From contig JACJNZ010000052.1 in assembly GCA_014695325.1 (NCBI GenBank), positions 62,001 to 126,000 on the forward strand: a stretch of 64,000 bases of DNA, in the 5' to 3' direction. Below the pieces are notes generated by a model. That model was given only the letters and a program-made list of their open reading frames with translations. It did not search any database and was not told where the DNA came from. The translations under genes and the position numbers were made by a program. Origin of the DNA: Cyanobacteria bacterium FACHB-502. GTDB taxonomy: Bacteria > Cyanobacteriota > Cyanobacteriia > Elainellales > Elainellaceae. Below are positions 30,977 to 59,595 of this stretch, piece by piece (within the stretch, counting starts at the first letter, position 1; every line of letters starts with the position of its first letter).

Positions 30977-31156
30977 CACATTCACGGCAGTTAGCGAGAG
31001 ATTCACCTGGCAGTTTTCGTTCCAGTCAAAACTAACACAGCCTTTTATGCAAATCCGGAAATTGACCTGCATGTACTGACTGGGAAAGCCATGAACGGAA
31101 ACTACAGCGCATCTCCAGAGTTCCCAGGGATTGCTGAAATCGCTCTTGGCTTATAC

Positions 31157-52168: not shown

Positions 52169-53197
52169 ATGCGTCAATCCCGATTTGCGCTCTATTTTTC
52201 CATCGGATTATTTTTGGTTACGCTTTGTACGATCGTCTTGCTAATGGTTGAGGTTGCCCCAGCACGATCGAATGCGCCGTTCATGGGAATCATGATCGAT
52301 CCGGGTTCTTCAGCTCCGATAGTGCATCTGCCGAATCGTCTTTTCAACTGCACAGATGAAAACCAGCAATTTCGCTGTCAGGCATCCTTAAAAGAGCAGC
52401 CCCTCCAGATCACGTTTGACCAAGGCAAAGACTATATTTACTTTCTGCAAAACTGCCGTGCGACCTATGCAGGTCAGGCAACAAACTGTCAGGCAGCGCA
52501 AGGCGGCAATATGACCCAGCGTGGCGTTCTATCTTATTATTCGCTCACCACCAATCTGGGACTGACAGTTCCTGAACTTAAGGCTCTCCAGCGACAATAC
52601 TGGCTGACTAACCTGGTGGGCACTAGCGCAGAAGGCTTTATCTGGATCGGGGGCTGGGCGATCGCAGCGATCGGGGCGGCACTTGCGATCGGGTTGAACT
52701 GGCTGGAGGATAACCTCCTCACTCGCAGTTTCACCAGCCTGAGCAGTGGCTTTGGTCTGGCTTTGTTGACCTGGTTTGTGCTTGCCAGAATTCCTTACAC
52801 AACGCTGGCGCAGTACGGCATTAACGAATCGACTTGGCGTTTTGTGCTTCCCATCATCACAATCGCGGCTGGCACGCTGGGGTCAATTCTGACAGGTTTT
52901 TATGTGAGTCGGCGCACCCGCCCAGCCCTGAAAGCAGTGACAAGTTTGCTGATGGGATTTGCCACTGCATTTCTCTCCTGGTTCTTTTTCCCAATCGTTC
53001 TTTCAGTCATTCCGGAAGGCTGGTGGCTGAGGATTCCCTTAACCGTGATGTTTGGAACAGCTACAACTATTCTGCTGCTGAAAGACACAGGGCGATCGAT
53101 CAAGTTCTTTTCCTGTAGCGTCAGTGCGCTAGGAGCGTTTGTGATGCTGCTGACGCTGATTACTCACCTTGGGCTAATTCTGGGATTTGCAGATTAG
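52169..53197 (+). CDS. Membrane protein with an extracytoplasmic Cys-rich domain
   Basis: 342 residues. An N-terminal signal or anchor helix (8-30) is followed by an extracytoplasmic domain (about 35-150) with four cysteines (FNCTDENQQFRC, NCRATYAGQATNC) that could form two disulphides. Six further membrane helices fill residues 160-340. I do not recognise the family. The next gene, marR, starts 51 bases later, and its promoter is in that gap. It might be a sensor or a transporter subunit, but there is no evidence for either. Confidence 0.7.
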   Translation: MRQSRFALYFSIGLFLVTLCTIVLLMVEVAPARSNAPFMGIMIDPGSSAPIVHLPNRLFNCTDENQQFRCQASLKEQPLQITFDQGKDYIYFLQNCRATYAGQATNCQAAQGGNMTQRGVLSYYSLTTNLGLTVPELKALQRQYWLTNLVGTSAEGFIWIGGWAIAAIGAALAIGLNWLEDNLLTRSFTSLSSGFGLALLTWFVLARIPYTTLAQYGINESTWRFVLPIITIAAGTLGSILTGFYVSRRTRPALKAVTSLLMGFATAFLSWFFFPIVLSVIPEGWWLRIPLTVMFGTATTILLLKDTGRSIKFFSCSVSALGAFVMLLTLITHLGLILGFAD

Positions 53198-53208
53198 TGG
53201 ATTGCCTG

Positions 53209-53227
53209 AACTCATATAATTTGAGTT
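53209..53227 (+). promoter_or_regulatory. Palindromic operator over the marR -10 box
   Basis: AACTCA-TATAATT-TGAGTT is a perfect 6-base inverted repeat (53209-53214 and 53222-53227) that encloses a consensus TATAAT -10 box (53215-53220), 20 bases before the marR ATG. Autorepression by MarR proteins at such sites is common. A matching -35 box is not obvious. Confidence 0.6.
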
Positions 53228-53247
53228 AGAACTATTCTGCTGCCGCC

Positions 53248-53703
53248 ATGACCGATTCTCCTCATCCCACAACTCAATATTCCTATCTGCCTGTTCTGAG
53301 AGAGCTTGTTCGCACTTATCAGGCTTTCTCTTCGATTGATGAGGCACAAATTCGCACCTATGGGTTGACGGCAAGCCAGTTTGACGTGATTGCTACCTTA
53401 GGCAACACAGACGGCATGACGATGAGCGATCTGGCAGAAAAAACGCTGGTCACAAAAGGAACGCTGACCGGAATTGTCGATCGTTTGGAAGCAAAGCAAT
53501 TAGTACGGCGAGAAGTCCCGGAAGGCGATCGTCGCTGCTTTAAAGTCGTGCTGACAGCGGCAGGAGAAGCCCTGTTCCACGACATCTTTCCAAACCACAT
53601 GGCGTTTCTTCAGGAGCGATTCGATCGTCTAGAAACCTCGGAATTAGAGCTATTGCGGGTTTTGTTGGGGCGTGTGCGATCGGCATTTACAGAGCGATCT
53701 TAA
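53248..53703 (+). CDS. MarR-family transcription regulator
   Basis: 151 residues, standard MarR length. A winged helix-turn-helix sits at about 45-110: LTASQFDVIATLGNTDGMTMSDLAEKTLVTKGTLTGIVDRLEAKQLVRR, with the wing EVPEGDRRCFKVVLT. The flanking helices form the dimer. There is a single Cys (DRRCFK), so a two-cysteine redox switch is not evident. The palindrome over its own -10 box suggests autoregulation; the CDGSH gene 128 bases downstream has a palindrome over its -35 box and is the likely target. Confidence 0.92.
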   Translation: MTDSPHPTTQYSYLPVLRELVRTYQAFSSIDEAQIRTYGLTASQFDVIATLGNTDGMTMSDLAEKTLVTKGTLTGIVDRLEAKQLVRREVPEGDRRCFKVVLTAAGEALFHDIFPNHMAFLQERFDRLETSELELLRVLLGRVRSAFTERS

Positions 53704-53734
53704 GCCTGGATAAGCAGTATTCTTTGAACAAGAT

Positions 53735-53767
53735 AGTTTGACACCAAACTAATTCATGCTAGATTAG
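53735..53767 (+). promoter_or_regulatory. CDGSH-gene promoter with palindromes
   Basis: TTGACA (53738-53743), a 16-base spacer and TAGATT (53760-53765) make a good sigma-70 promoter. AGTTTG-ACAC-CAAACT (53735-53750) is a perfect inverted repeat over the -35 box, and CTAAT-N9-ATTAG (53749-53767) overlaps the -10. These are candidate MarR operators. Confidence 0.6.
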
Positions 53768-53831
53768 CTTTAGTAGAAAGTACGAGTTCAAACTTTTTGG
53801 CTTTAAACAATTAATTTTAAGGAGAACTCCG

Positions 53832-54020
53832 ATGCCTGAACTGCCTCTAACCCTGCAACTTGATGCAGGAACCTACTGGCTCTGCACCTGCGGTAAGTCC
53901 GAAAACTTTCCCTATTGCAATGGCGCACACAAAGGCTCTGGCTTTACACCAAAGCAGTTTGAGCTGACCGCACCTGCCACCGTTGAAATTACGGCTCCGG
54001 GCGAGGCGATCGTTCGCTAA
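53832..54020 (+). CDS. CDGSH iron-sulfur protein
   Basis: 62 residues with one CDGSH-type motif: ligands Cys18, Cys20, Cys29 and His33 (CTCGKSENFPYCNGAH), which bind a 2Fe-2S cluster that is redox- and pH-sensitive. The canonical Asp is Asn in YCNGAH. GGAG lies nine bases before the ATG. Small bacterial members are electron carriers or cluster donors. It lies between marR and ndh-2, both on the plus strand, and may belong with them to a redox-stress unit. Confidence 0.92.
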   Translation: MPELPLTLQLDAGTYWLCTCGKSENFPYCNGAHKGSGFTPKQFELTAPATVEITAPGEAIVR

Positions 54021-54167
54021 AAGTCGCGCCTTTGCAAAGCACAATTCGATCGTCCCAAAATCGTCCCAATGAGGAATCTGCTTCCCCTGCGGCTGGGTTT
54101 TTGGCAGGGTTTCGGTTCAAAATGAAAGTAGCCTGTCTCAAATCCAGCCATTTCTGAGGAATTTGCC

Positions 54168-55562
54168 GTGAGTGCCAGAGGCTATCGCAGCGCAGGTGAT
54201 TCGGTGCGTGACCCGGTAGGTAATCCAGTTGTGATCGTGGGTGCGGGATTTGGCGGCATTCAGGCAGCACGCACTCTTGCCCGGCAGGGAGTTTCAGTTC
54301 TGCTGATCGATCGCCAGCCTTATCACCTTTTCACGCCGTTTCTGCATCAGGTGGCAATGGCAGAGCTAGAGCCAGATCAGGTGGGAATTCCGATTCGGCG
54401 ACTGCTGCGATCGTCCCCCAAGGTTCAGTTTCTCCAAGCCGACGTGCAGGCAATTCGCTGGGACAAACAGAGGCTTGAAACCTCAGCAGGACAGGTTTCT
54501 TTTGAGTATCTGGTTCTGGCAACGGGCAGTTTCACTCATGCAGAAGTTCCCGGAGCAGCACAGCACACGCTGCCGCTCAAAACTCTGCCTCAGGCGATCG
54601 AGCTTCGTAATCACATTTTGTCTCGTGTTGAACAGGCCGTGAATGAGCCTGATCCGGCGCATCAGCAGCGGTTACTCACGTTTGCCGTGATTGGAGGCGG
54701 CTCAACGGGTGTCGAAGTTGCCGGATCGCTTGCCGAGTGGATTCAGGAGGGGCTGAGCAAAGACTATTCTATGCTCGATCGATCGCCCCTCAAGGGGAAG
54801 GGCTTCGCATCGCAGTTTCGGTTAATGGTGCTGCATTCAGGCGATCGGCTCCTGGAAACAATGGCTCCTCGGCTTAGCCGCTATACCGAACGACAGCTTA
54901 AACGGCTCGGGGTAGAAGTGTGGCTGCATAGCAGGGTGACTCAGGTTAAGGCAGGTCGAATCACGGTTCAGACGGGCAATCTTCAGACGGACGATCTTCA
55001 GACAGGCGATCACGTGAATTTGATTGAGGCAGAAACGATCGTCTGGGCGGGCGGCATACAGGTGAAAGTGCCGGAGTTGTGGCGGCTTCCCACCGCACCC
55101 AGCGGCAGAGCAGCTACGTTAGCCTCGCTAAATTTGCCAGAGCACCCCAAAGTGTACGCGATCGGCGATCTGGCAGAAGTGGGCTGGAATGACCAGGCGT
55201 TACCCATGCTGGCTCCCACTGCTGATGCTCAAGGCAAAGCCGTTGCCCAAAACATTCTGCGCCAAATGCAGGGACAGCCTCCGCTTCCCTATCGGCACAA
55301 CGATCGCGGCACAATGGCAATTTTGAGCCGATTTCGGGCAGTGGTGCAGCGCGGCAAGTTCACCATGACCGGATTTCCCGCCTGGCTGCTGTGGCTTGGC
55401 TTTCACTGGTTTATTCTTCCCGGCATGCGCCAGCGCATTCTTGTTTTAATTCACTGGATGTCCAATCATTTGCGGCATGATCGCATTCCGGCTGCTGTTC
55501 TTCGCTCTTCGCTTCAGGATTCCTCAACGCAAAACAAAACTTATTCCGCTCGTTCTCGATAA
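54168..55562 (+). CDS. Type II NAD(P)H dehydrogenase
   Basis: 464 residues with two dinucleotide-binding folds: VIVGAGFGGIQAARTLARQG at about 18-37 (FAD) and FAVIGGGSTGVEVAGSLAEW at about 170 (NAD). YAIGDLAE near 325 completes FAD binding. The C-terminal 60 residues have an amphipathic or membrane-associated stretch (FPAWLLWLGFHWFILPGM). GTG start at 54168 with TGAGGA before it. NDH-2 passes electrons to plastoquinone without pumping protons, and in cyanobacteria is thought to sense redox state. Upstream gene is CDGSH. Confidence 0.92.
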   Translation: MSARGYRSAGDSVRDPVGNPVVIVGAGFGGIQAARTLARQGVSVLLIDRQPYHLFTPFLHQVAMAELEPDQVGIPIRRLLRSSPKVQFLQADVQAIRWDKQRLETSAGQVSFEYLVLATGSFTHAEVPGAAQHTLPLKTLPQAIELRNHILSRVEQAVNEPDPAHQQRLLTFAVIGGGSTGVEVAGSLAEWIQEGLSKDYSMLDRSPLKGKGFASQFRLMVLHSGDRLLETMAPRLSRYTERQLKRLGVEVWLHSRVTQVKAGRITVQTGNLQTDDLQTGDHVNLIEAETIVWAGGIQVKVPELWRLPTAPSGRAATLASLNLPEHPKVYAIGDLAEVGWNDQALPMLAPTADAQGKAVAQNILRQMQGQPPLPYRHNDRGTMAILSRFRAVVQRGKFTMTGFPAWLLWLGFHWFILPGMRQRILVLIHWMSNHLRHDRIPAAVLRSSLQDSSTQNKTYSARSR

Positions 55563-55636
55563 CGTTCTTTGTAATGTTCACGCTTTGTAATGTTCACGGT
55601 TCTGCCCTTCATCCGAGTTTGGTACAGGATTTTGAT

Positions 55637-56410
55637 ATGAGCTTCCCCAGCGTTTTCGTTTCCCACGGTTCGCCCGATTTGGTGTTGCATTCTGGTCGAT
55701 CGCTTGACTTTTATCGGCAGCTTGGAACCCAGATCGGCAAACCTAGCGCAATTCTCGTCGTTTCAGCTCACTGGCTTTCGACAGAACCGATCGTCAGCAC
55801 CGCAGCGCAGCCCCCGACAATTCATGATTTTGGCGGCTTTCCAGCAGAGCTGTATCAAATGCAGTATCCCGCTCCCGGTGCGCCTGCCCTGGCGGAAGCA
55901 GTGAAATCGCTGCTGATTCAGGCCGGATTTGCAGCCCAAACCCACCCCGATCGCGGGCTCGACCACGGAGCCTGGATACCCCTGATACTGATGTATCCCG
56001 ATGCGGAGATTCCGGTAACGCAGTTATCGATCCAGCCCCGCCGCGATCCTGCCTATCATTTCCAGCTCGGACAGGCACTCGCCCCCCTGCGTGACCAGAA
56101 TGTGCTGATTCTCGCAAGCGGCTCGCTGACTCATAATTTAGGAGCTTTGACCCGCAACAACTTTGAAGCAGAACCTACGGATTGGGCAGTTGCATTCGAC
56201 GAGTGGATCAGCAAGACGATCGCCCAACGCAAAATAGAAGACCTGCTGAACTATCGCCAGTTGGCTCCCTTTGCGATCGAAAACCACCCGACCGACGAAC
56301 ATTTGCTACCGCTTTTTGTGGCTGCCGGAGCAGGCGGGAATCAGCCCGTTCAGCTTCACTCGAATTTCACCTACGGTTCCCTCAGTATGGCAAGCTATGC
56401 CTTCGCCTGA
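55637..56410 (+). CDS. DODA-type extradiol ring-opening dioxygenase
   Basis: 257 residues, LigB superfamily, like YgiD (4,5-DOPA dioxygenase). His10 (VSHGSPD), His45 (SAHWLS), a third His in LDHGAWIPL and HNLG are the expected metal and active-site residues. The start is ATG 55637; the frame stays open to 55574, in the gap after ndh-2. It would cleave a catechol-type ring next to the hydroxyls. Its last 16 bases overlap the end of the convergent dienelactone hydrolase gene. Physiological substrate unknown. Confidence 0.9.
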   Translation: MSFPSVFVSHGSPDLVLHSGRSLDFYRQLGTQIGKPSAILVVSAHWLSTEPIVSTAAQPPTIHDFGGFPAELYQMQYPAPGAPALAEAVKSLLIQAGFAAQTHPDRGLDHGAWIPLILMYPDAEIPVTQLSIQPRRDPAYHFQLGQALAPLRDQNVLILASGSLTHNLGALTRNNFEAEPTDWAVAFDEWISKTIAQRKIEDLLNYRQLAPFAIENHPTDEHLLPLFVAAGAGGNQPVQLHSNFTYGSLSMASYAFA

Positions 56411-57289: not shown

Positions 57290-57356
57290 AGCTTCTTTAC
57301 CTCATCTCTCTATCTCTCTATCTCCCTATCTCCCTATCTCCTCCCCTTCCCATCTA
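57290..57356. repeat. C/T microsatellite-like tract
   Basis: CTCTATCT/CCCTATCT octamer-like units in tandem, from about 57300 to 57356. Here the pyrimidine strand is the plus strand, while both neighbouring genes are on the minus strand, so this copy does not fit the leader pattern of the others. Confidence 0.7.
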
Positions 57357-58421
57357 TCCATCTACCCGCACGATCGCTGCCACAGGTCCACCTCCCGGCA
57401 ATCCCTGATGCTCACTGCCCCCTGATACATACACCATCGGGTCTTGCACCACAGAAGCCACAACGGCTCCCACGACTGCACGCGCCATCCGGGTATGGTT
57501 AATATCGGAGTCATCGAGCATCGTGTGTCTGCGTCCCAAAATTGCGCCAGCGGGATCGGCTTCAGCTTTCGCAAAGATATTCACAATTCGATCGATCGGC
57601 TGTCCAGTTTGCTCGATCGCCCGCCGTACCGCATCCTGATCGAGCGCGTGAGCCATGACGCTGTGCCCAATTACAAACTCGCTGGCAGAATGGCTGGCAT
57701 TGCCCATCACAATAATCTCGCAGTTTTGCAGCTCCACCCCCGCAGAAGTCGAAGCGATCGAGGAGTAAAGGCTGTAATTTGAACAAATGTCTGCATCGCT
57801 TAACTGAGCCAGATCGACTTCTCCCAGAGCAACCGCCACGCCCAGCGCAGAAGCTCCCCGCGAATATGCCATCGACTGATAGCTGCTGCCCGCCTGCCCG
57901 GACTGTTCTCGCTGAGCGGCAGTGACCAAGGGACATTTGATCTGAACAAAATGCACGTCGGCTTTGTTTAATCCTGCGGAATCGATCGCTTGCTGCACCG
58001 CATCGGCAACTTCCTTCACCATTGCCACGGTTCCCACTTCCTGCGGCAAAAAGTCTCGCGTTCGGCTCACCCCCAGCACTAGACCCCAGCGGTGCGGCAT
58101 ATCTGGCTCAACCTGCTCCTGAGTAAAAATTGTCAGATGTGGACTCAGCACGCCTTCTGTGCCGCCCGACATCACATAAATAATTTCCTCGGCTGTCTTC
58201 TCAGCCATTTTCCCTTCGCCATCGCCAATCTGCTGGCTCAAAAATGTCTTCAGCGTTTGAACCGCGAAACCCCGTGTAAAATCATTAACACAGCCGTTGC
58301 CTTCGGTTTTTCCCATAATGGCAACGATCGTCGCCGGATTAACCTCGTCTTCAATTAACTTTTGTAACCCGGCCAAATCATCAGGGCTACTTTGCGGAAT
58401 TTTGTAAACTCCTACTTTCAT
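57354..58421 (-). CDS. Ring-opening amidohydrolase (cyanuric acid hydrolase/barbiturase family)
   Basis: 355 residues from ATG 58421, near the 363 of AtzD. Three repeats of the AtzD fold each supply a Lys-Ser pair. Visible are Lys38 (GKTEGNG) and Ser85 (SGGTEG), Lys162 (IKCPLVT) and the Ser cluster at 224-226, and Lys285 (FAKAEADP) and Ser333 (VSGGSEHQG). The family hallmark [12 protein letters not shown] is present. It should hydrolyse cyanuric acid, barbiturate or a related ring. Upstream ATGs at 58433 and 58481 are possible starts. Divergent from the GntR gene. Confidence 0.9.
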
Positions 58422-58602
58422 GGGTATTTTCATGGGGGTTCGCCTCACACTGATCGCCTTATATCTCACCCTCAACATCATCTCAGCAATTCCGCCGATT
58501 TTCGCCTCTGCGCTCTCCTGCCCGAAATGCCGTCTATCCTTTCTGTAGCTACCTTTCAGTGTTCTTCCTTCGTTAAACGCTTTACCCTCTTTGGAGACTG
58601 CT

Positions 58603-59595
58603 ATGGTTCAGTTCCGGATTCAACCCGATAGCGAAATCCCGGCATCGACCCAGCTCTATAACCAAATCCGCTTTGCGATCGCCTCACGGCAGTTTCCGCC
58701 CGGTCATCGGCTGCCCAGTACCCGCCAGCTTGCCATGCAAACTGGACTGCACCGAAACACGATCAGCAAAGTCTATCGCCAACTTGAGGATGACGGCATT
58801 GTTGATGCGCGAGCCGGAGCCGGAATCTATGTACGGGCGCAGGGTGACGAAGGCGGCAACATGGCAAAAGGACGATCGCCCCTGGTCGAGCAATACCCGC
58901 AGGCATATAAGCTAGTGCAGCGCAGCCTCGACGATTTGCTGAATCACGGCTGCTCCCTGACTCAGGCAAGAGAACTCTTCCTTGCTGAAATTGACTGGCG
59001 ACTCCGATGCAGTGCGCGAGTCCTGGTCACGGCTCCCCAGCAGGATATCGGCGCAGGCGAACTGATGGCACACGAACTAGAGCACGCTCTCCAGATTCCG
59101 GTGCAGCTTGTCCCCCTAGAAGAACTGGCTCAAGTGCTGGATCAGACCCGATCGGGCACGGTTGTTACCAGCCGCTATTTCATTGGAGCCGCTGAGTCGA
59201 TCGCCTCACCCAAAGCAGTGCGCGTCATTCCCGTAGACATCTACGACTATGGGCACGAAATTCAAAAACTGCTGAAGCTGCCCCAAGATAGCTGCCTGGG
59301 CTTGGTCAGTCTCAGTGGCGGCATTCTGCGCGCTGCCGAAGTGATTGTAAACAGCCTGCGAGGGGACGATTTGCTGATTATGACCACCCAGCCCAACGAT
59401 ACCTATAAGCTGAATGCGATCGTCCACAGTGCCCAAACGATTTTTAGCTTTGATCAGGCAAGCGGGGTCGCAGTCAAAGCAGCTGTCGCAACCGCCAGAG
59501 AAGATTTAATTCGCGCTCCGGTCATTATCTGCTGCGAGAACTATATCGGCGAAAAGTCCATTCATCTCTTGAAGCGCGAACTTGGCTTGGATTAA
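58603..59595 (+). CDS. GntR-family regulator with large effector domain
   Basis: 330 residues. Residues 8-78 form a GntR winged helix-turn-helix ([53 protein letters not shown], of the YtrA type). Residues 105-330 are a globular domain unlike the FadR or UTRA domains, with alternating beta strands and helices that could bind a ligand. GGAG precedes ATG 58603 by about eight bases. It is divergent from the ring-opening amidohydrolase gene (181 bases between starts), which suggests it controls it. Its last four bases overlap the convergent hydrolase gene. Confidence 0.9.

What the first reader, a model, noticed from the sequence alone, without database searches (positions are those of the whole stretch)
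53197..54168. MarR gene with -10 box inside a palindrome, next to a CDGSH gene with palindromic promoter
AACTCA-N7-TGAGTT surrounds the marR TATAAT, and AGTTTG-N4-CAAACT covers the -35 of the CDGSH gene. This suggests an autoregulated MarR that senses a signal and controls an Fe-S protein, with NDH-2 immediately downstream: a small redox regulon not known to me.
Basis: partly seen in the sequence, partly recalled or inferred. Interest (0 to 1): 0.55.

Follow-up and report, generated by a model that had tools for sequence, protein, structure and literature searches.

The report
MarR-controlled quinone-response operon in cyanobacteria
A small repressor gene in a cyanobacterium appears to control itself and a neighbouring iron-sulfur (CDGSH) gene through short mirror-image DNA sites that recur beside related genes in other cyanobacteria and some acid-loving bacteria, which suggests an undescribed response to toxic quinones.

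Summary
Alone they are weak: a 6-bp repeat falls in 127 of 1279 windows of 50 nt. Comparison gives the evidence. A matrix from 13 CDGSH-promoter sites of 9 other loci (window and congener left out) ranks three sites of this locus 1st, 2nd and 4th in 64 kb: 53778-53795 and 53734-53751 around the CDGSH promoter, 53217-53234 over the marR -10. The motif lies upstream of marR in 47 of 91 loci, against 6 of 242 other upstream regions, and in 12 of 14 gaps between marR and dioxygenase, hydroquinone-reductase or DoxX genes (shuffles 0.7). The closest solved protein is MhqR, a quinone-sensing repressor. Best reading: an MhqR-like autorepressor, released by quinones or related aromatics, controlling CDGSH-(NDH-2)-(LigB). 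Operators: strong computational case. Ligand: inference. Against: 49 of 91 marR loci lack these partners; the four-gene relative L022 has no clear CDGSH site. Nothing was tested at the bench.

The parts
53248..53703 (+). marR-family regulator gene, 151 aa
   Evidence: PF12802/PF01047 above cut-off; best solved relative S. aureus MhqR 9qdr/9smz
53217..53234 (+). predicted MarR operator at the marR promoter, TAATTTGAGTTAGAACTA, overlapping the -10
   Evidence: 15.5 bits, 2nd best in the 64-kb window with a matrix trained without window and congener; identical in the congener L021
   Evidence: present; left arm not kept in the congener; 6-bp repeats common by chance
53215..53220 (+). marR TATAAT (-10), no clear -35
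   Evidence: sequence; no promoter called there
53734..53751 (+). operator site 1 of CDGSH, TAGTTTGACACCAAACTA, over the -35
   Evidence: 12.5 bits, 4th best in window; kept in the congener
   Evidence: 16.6 bits, best in window; kept in the congener at the same 44-bp distance with one changed base
53738..53765 (+). CDGSH promoter TTGACA-16-TAGATT with TG extension, bracketed by the two sites
53832..54020 (+). CDGSH (NEET-type) iron-sulfur protein gene, 62 aa, single motif with CNGAH in place of CDGSH
   Evidence: PF09360 36.4 bits over cut-off 29.5; the only match in the genome; three Cys and one His invariant
54168..55562 (+). NDH-2-type NADH:quinone oxidoreductase gene
   Evidence: PF07992; best solved relative 9mqy, named NADH:ubiquinone reductase
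55574..56410 (+). LigB-type extradiol dioxygenase (4,5-DOPA dioxygenase-like); likelier start at 55637
   Evidence: PF02900; NF007914 220 bits, below its cut-off of 233

Best explanation
The locus is an autoregulated MarR repressor with a short downstream operon, CDGSH-NDH-2-LigB. Without inducer the MarR dimer sits on 18-bp AGTT-N8-AACT-type operators: one over the marR -10 (53217-53234) and two that bracket the CDGSH promoter (53734-53751 over the -35, 53778-53795 just past the -10), and keeps RNA polymerase off. A quinone, catechol or similar aromatic electrophile binds the pocket between dimerisation and DNA-binding regions, not by a cysteine switch, and releases the DNA. The induced proteins then reduce or cleave the compound: NDH-2 reduces quinones with NADH, LigB opens catechol rings, and CDGSH acts as a one-electron redox or cluster-transfer partner. 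Shown by computation: genes, operator motif, its conservation, recurring gene partners, kinship to MhqR. Inferred: binding itself, repression as the sign, the ligand, read-through into NDH-2 and LigB, and the work of CDGSH.
For: Operators: matrix from 13 sites of 9 other loci ranks the three window sites 1st, 2nd and 4th in 64 kb. marR upstream regions, not used in training: 47 of 91 at 9 bits or more, against 3 of 507 random stretches and 6 of 242 upstream of other ORFs; of 200 permuted matrices the highest reached 13 loci at 10 bits, against 37. CDGSH upstream: 12 of 15 linked loci have a site with at least 7 of 8 core bases, or 6 with a perfect 7-bp repeat, against a shuffle mean of 1.7 (highest 5 in 300 rounds) and 25 of 244 other upstream regions (9 of the 12 gave the training sites); 7 of 15 have a pair 33-44 bp apart, Acidithiobacillus included. 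Gaps between marR and LigB, hydroquinone reductase or DoxX: 12 of 14 hold the site, shuffles 0.7 (highest 3). Partners: at least one of CDGSH, LigB, Xi-class glutathione transferase of the hydroquinone-reductase kind, DoxX, NDH-2, YceI near 42 of 91 marR genes. Sensor: MhqR is the best of 177635 solved sequences for the protein and for its profile; its pocket residues F39 and H111 match F45 (90 of 91) and H117 (83 of 91); 33 of 91 members have no cysteine.
Against: 49 of 91 marR loci have none of the six partner families within the range looked at. L022, with the same four-gene order, has no clear site before CDGSH; L126 and L136 neither. In the unbiased dyad count the exact AGTT-N8-AACT was not among the 25 best, and only L026 holds it without mismatch upstream of marR. 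23 of 31 genomes with both the MarR subfamily and a scanned CDGSH gene had no site. MhqR pocket residues F11 and E43 are L17 and A49 here, and F39 or H111 also occur in urate or salicylate binders. The MhqR operator (TATCTCGAA-aTCGAaATA) differs. NDH-2 and LigB of the window have no site of their own. The two hydroquinone reductases of this genome lack the motif. Loci are related by descent, so the counts are not independent.
Confidence: 0.6

Rival explanations
1. Same repressor and operators, but the inducer is a non-quinone aromatic (a phenolic acid, urate or a plant or lichen phenolic), and CDGSH, NDH-2 and LigB serve its breakdown or redox balance.
For: The pocket residues shared with MhqR also occur in salicylate and urate binders; best NCBIfam match is HpaR, the homoprotocatechuate regulator, though only 58 bits against a cut-off of 121; LigB and a DLH-family hydrolase lie downstream.
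Against: Glutathionyl-hydroquinone-reductase-like proteins and NDH-2, both quinone-related, recur beside the family.
Confidence: 0.25
2. The palindromes are bound by another regulator, such as a LysR protein like PirR of Synechocystis, and the MarR controls something else.
For: In Synechocystis the pirAB operon is repressed by the LysR regulator PirR, encoded divergently next to it (passages of PMC5318462); a CDGSH-pirin-(hydroquinone reductase) order with the same motif but without this MarR in the fetched flanks occurs in other cyanobacteria.
Against: The motif lies in marR promoters themselves in 47 of 91 loci; among 77 CDGSH genomes counted it was upstream of CDGSH in 8 of 31 with this MarR subfamily and 2 of 46 without, the two being the weakest (9.3 and 10.2 bits) (Fisher p 0.012; p 0.0004 if only sites of 11 bits or more count, a cut made afterwards; genomes are related).
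Confidence: 0.1
3. The marR palindrome and the CDGSH palindrome are chance repeats and the MarR does not regulate its neighbour.
For: Palindromes of these arm lengths are common.
Against: The held-out comparisons.
Confidence: 0.05

Closest known systems
MhqR of Staphylococcus aureus and Bacillus subtilis (MarR-type quinone repressor; mhqRED, mhqNOP, azoR2)
   Same: Autoregulated MarR; best sequence match among solved proteins; non-thiol sensing (passages of PMC6798810, one from its abstract), agreeing with the lack of a conserved cysteine here; 18-bp inverted repeat near the start of transcription; a dioxygenase gene among the targets.
   Different: Operator letters differ; the dioxygenase here is of the LigB family, MhqE is of another (recalled); CDGSH, NDH-2, hydroquinone reductase and YceI are not among the MhqR targets named in the passages read; pocket residues E43 and F11 not kept.
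YodB/CatR and QsrR (thiol-based quinone-sensing MarR/DUF24 repressors; recalled)
   Same: Control of catechol dioxygenase, DoxX and quinone reductases (recalled).
   Different: They use conserved cysteines (recalled); here 33 of 91 members have none.
pirAB-PirR of Synechocystis sp. PCC 6803
   Same: Small operon next to its repressor; the CDGSH-pirin order with this motif occurs in other cyanobacteria; that pirB is a CDGSH gene is recalled and unchecked.
   Different: PirR is of the LysR family (passages of PMC5318462).
NEET/CDGSH proteins (mitoNEET, CISD3/MiNT)
   Same: PF09360, three Cys and one His ligand pattern; best solved relatives 3tbn and 6avj (CISD3).
   Different: One motif only, with Asn for the Asp of CDGSH; next to a MarR gene.

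Membership tests
MarR family | MarR winged-helix domain | tested here: met
   PF12802 60.7 bits and PF01047 59.1 bits over cut-offs 27 and 24.6
MhqR | closest relative among known regulators | tested here: inconclusive
   best of the solved proteins but only 55 bits; solved structures only, no MhqR model among the 15 NCBIfam hits
MhqR | MhqR operator TATCTCGAA-aTCGAaATA | tested here: not met
   the sites here follow AGTT-N8-AACT; operator as read
MhqR | quinone pocket F11, F39, E43, H111 | tested here: inconclusive
   F45 90 of 91 and H117 83 of 91 kept; position 17 is M/L/V/I and position 49 A in 68 of 91
MhqR | release from DNA by quinones | not testable with these tools
   needs protein
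Thiol-switch MarR (OhrR, QsrR, YodB) | conserved sensing cysteine | tested here: not met
   33 of 91 members without any cysteine; the window protein has one, C97, which is Cys in 34 and Ser in 50 of 91
CDGSH/NEET | 3-Cys 1-His cluster ligands | tested here: met
   C18, C20, C29, H33 invariant in 9 of 9
CDGSH/NEET | literal C-D-G-S-H | tested here: not met
   CNGAH in window and congener, CNGSH in L022
NDH-2 | homology to NADH:quinone oxidoreductases | tested here: met
   9mqy 3e-55, 4nwz 4e-28
NDH-2 | NADH:quinone activity | not testable with these tools
   needs enzyme

The most novel reading that the evidence does not exclude
A lineage of MhqR-like repressors, shared by cyanobacteria and acidophilic proteobacteria, uses a pair of AGTT-N8-AACT operators around the promoter of a NEET protein: in this reading bacterial CDGSH proteins are dedicated parts of a quinone or electrophile defence, passing electrons between NDH-2 and quinones, and the family would be the first regulon built around a NEET protein.
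Probability: 0.35. Interest if true: 0.7.

Novelty: new variant of a known kind. Interest (0 to 1): 0.52.

Why it matters
To my knowledge bacterial CDGSH proteins have little functional context. A repressor, an operator and a recurring set of partners (LigB, hydroquinone reductase, DoxX, YceI, NDH-2, pirin) over distant lineages give a testable role: handling of quinones or aromatic electrophiles. Phototrophs carry large quinone pools and meet plant, lichen and algal phenolics, yet the listings of the searches made here showed no described MarR-CDGSH system.

Tried and rejected
An unbiased dyad count over 91 marR upstream regions gave TCTA-N2-TAGA (12 loci, 0.53 expected) and TAGA-N5-TCTA (11, 0.17 expected) among the top, plus dyads unrelated to this motif such as GCGA-N0-TCGC (13, 0.50 expected); the exact AGTT-N8-AACT was not among the 25 listed.

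Wider regulon in this genome: pattern searches gave fewer hits than the reversed-pattern control (16 against 56; 64/59 against 74/88; 12 against 37), so no sign of many further targets. One perfect core elsewhere (G000:C34:1134892) lies inside a 425-aa coding frame. Both hydroquinone reductases of the genome lack the motif in the fetched loci. The viral collection held no relative. Paper searches for MarR with CDGSH, NDH-2, DoxX-pirin and hydroquinone reductase, judged by their listings only, showed nothing on this system. No structure was predicted.

Limits: the 13 training sites were picked by me output on the AGTT/AACT core. The regions upstream of marR, LigB and unlinked CDGSH genes were not used in training, but the loci are related. 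One search took 83 of the 95 CDGSH genomes (12 left out, among them window, congener and five of the family with linked or fetched loci); 8 of its 90 loci gave no frame with the CDGSH pattern and fell out, two of them (L165, L256) from genomes with the MarR, so that 77 genomes were counted; 'not adjacent' there means no MarR in the fetched flanks, mostly about 1.5 kb. Neighbour clusters are single-linkage; in the CDGSH cluster of 17, L135 is not a CDGSH frame, L138 is broken and L071 lies by another MarR, so tblastn gives 15 linked loci, L077 among them. The LigB/hydroquinone-reductase gaps include 60 nt past the first possible start.
Full report
WHAT IS THERE. The window is a stretch of a 6.6-Mb genome whose relatives by this MarR are mostly cyanobacteria of Leptolyngbya-like groups. 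Around the finding lie, all on the + strand, marR (53248-53703), a CDGSH gene (53832-54020), an NDH-2-type oxidoreductase (54168-55562) and a LigB-type extradiol dioxygenase (55574-56410); a DLH-family hydrolase and an AtzD-type amidohydrolase follow on the other strand. The CDGSH gene is the only match to its family in the genome, and there is one member of this MarR subfamily: its score is 253 bits, and the next MarR scores 60.

THE OBSERVATION. Both palindromes are present at the stated places, and each perfect form occurs once in the genome. The CDGSH palindrome covers the -35 of the best promoter-like site in the region, TTGACA-16-TAGATT with a TG extension. As repeats they are not remarkable: 6-bp inverted repeats with a spacer of up to 20 occur in 127 of 1279 windows of 50 nt and in 6.5% of shuffles of the marR upstream region, 7-bp repeats in 33 of 499 windows of 128 nt and in 21.6% of shuffles of the CDGSH upstream region.

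COMPARISON. In 15 of these a CDGSH gene follows marR within 2.5 kb. Twelve of the 15 carry, upstream of CDGSH, an 18-bp site with at least 7 of the 8 core bases of AGTT-N8-AACT, or 6 with a perfect 7-bp inverted repeat; shuffles give 1.7 on average and at most 5, and 25 of 244 upstream regions of other ORFs pass. L022, L126 and L136 do not. Seven of 15 carry a pair of sites 33 to 44 bp apart: the window and its congener L021 (44 bp), L077 and L082 (36), two Acidithiobacillus loci (35) and a proteobacterial MAG, L125 (33); 'pair' is my reading, and in the window it brackets the -10. In others a single TAGTTCTA-N2-TAGAACTA-like site is seen (L064, L116, L134, L034).

HELD-OUT TESTS. A symmetrical matrix from 13 sites of 9 loci, window and L021 excluded, was run over the window: 53778 scores 16.6, 53217 15.5, an unrelated place at 31017 14.0, and 53734 12.5 bits, the four best of 64 kb. 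On the 200 nt upstream of marR, which were not used in training, 47 of 91 loci reach 9 bits, against 3 of 507 random stretches and 6 of 242 regions upstream of other ORFs in the same loci; with 200 permutations of the matrix columns at most 13 loci reach 10 bits, against 37 with the real one. Between marR and a following LigB (11), hydroquinone reductase (2) or DoxX (1) gene, 12 of 14 gaps hold the site, against 0.7 on average and at most 3 in shuffles. In 77 genomes with a CDGSH gene the site stood before it in 8 of 31 that own this MarR subfamily and in 2 of 46 that do not, although in 7 of the 8 no MarR lies in the fetched flanks (Fisher p 0.012; threshold and sampling are mine). In 23 genomes with both genes there was no site, so the link is not general. 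In some unlinked cases CDGSH is followed by pirin and a hydroquinone-reductase-like gene.

THE marR SITE. The matrix places the operator at 53217-53234, TAATTTGAGTTAGAACTA, over the 3' part of TATAAT (53215-53220). With only one congener this is good but not final evidence.

WHAT THE GENES SAY. At least one of six families (CDGSH, LigB, Xi-class glutathione transferase, DoxX, NDH-2, YceI) lies near 42 of 91 marR genes. The transferase, one representative of which was searched, matches solved proteins named glutathione transferase, YqjG and glutathionyl hydroquinone reductase (4uss); that YqjG is such a reductase is recalled. The full order marR-CDGSH-NDH-2-LigB is seen in the window, L021 and L022. 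49 of 91 loci have none of the six in the range looked at, so other members may serve other genes.

THE SENSOR. The best match of the MarR among 177635 solved sequences, alone (6e-14) and as a profile (1e-17), is 9qdr/9smz, which PMC12893000 identifies as S. aureus MhqR, apo and bound to methylbenzoquinone (passages and one results section read). On the ungapped alignment its pocket residues F39 and H111 fall on F45 (90 of 91) and H117 (83 of 91), F11 on L17 and E43 on A49; the numbering follows from the spacing of F39, E43 and H111 in the printed alignment. The same paper says that F39 and H111 are each shared with some salicylate or urate binders, so this supports a ligand pocket more than it proves quinones. 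MhqR acts without a thiol switch and binds an 18-bp inverted repeat at -6 to +12 (passages of PMC6798810). Here 33 of 91 members lack cysteine.

MECHANISM. I take it to be an autorepressor that blocks its own -10 and clamps the CDGSH promoter from both sides, released by a quinone or related aromatic; NDH-2 and LigB would follow by read-through since they have no site of their own. Roles: NDH-2 two-electron reduction of quinones, LigB ring opening, CDGSH a redox or cluster-transfer helper; these come from family knowledge, not from tests. Sites placed over promoter elements point to repression, but the sign of control was not shown.

STATUS. The operators and autoregulation are strong computational predictions (I would put them near 0.85), the quinone ligand near 0.6, the CDGSH function open. 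Membership in MhqR proper is not claimed: operator and two pocket residues differ. It would work like MhqR, with a different operator and a different set of partners.

Noticed in passing
57354-58481 (-): AtzD-type ring-opening amidohydrolase, NF052395 468.6 bits over a cut-off of 360; homologues lie near the MarR block in L021 and L022. Its regulation and substrate were not studied.
   Followed up: no
58591-59595 (+): GntR-type regulator, 96% and 90% identical in the two relatives L021 and L022 where the MarR is 85% and 70% identical: a slower-changing protein of unknown role.
   Followed up: no
55574-56410 (+): The LigB frame has a likelier start at 55637 (MSFPSVFVSHG), so the gap to NDH-2 would be 74 nt and not 11.
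   Followed up: no
L150, L151, L156, L158, L159, L169: CDGSH genes without this MarR in the fetched flanks, some followed by pirin and a hydroquinone-reductase-like gene, carry the same operator motif, at times as a pair 30-44 bp apart, in genomes that own the MarR elsewhere.
   Followed up: partly
L101, L110, L115, L125, L128, L135, L136, L138: In Acidithiobacillus and other proteobacteria the MarR lies upstream of a YceI-like gene and a recurring protein without Pfam or NCBIfam match that looks membrane-bound; in L101, L110, L125 and L136 also of CDGSH.
   Followed up: partly
L071: Two MarR genes of this family about 3 kb apart, one before CDGSH-NDH-2 and one before hydroquinone reductase-LigB.
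   Followed up: no
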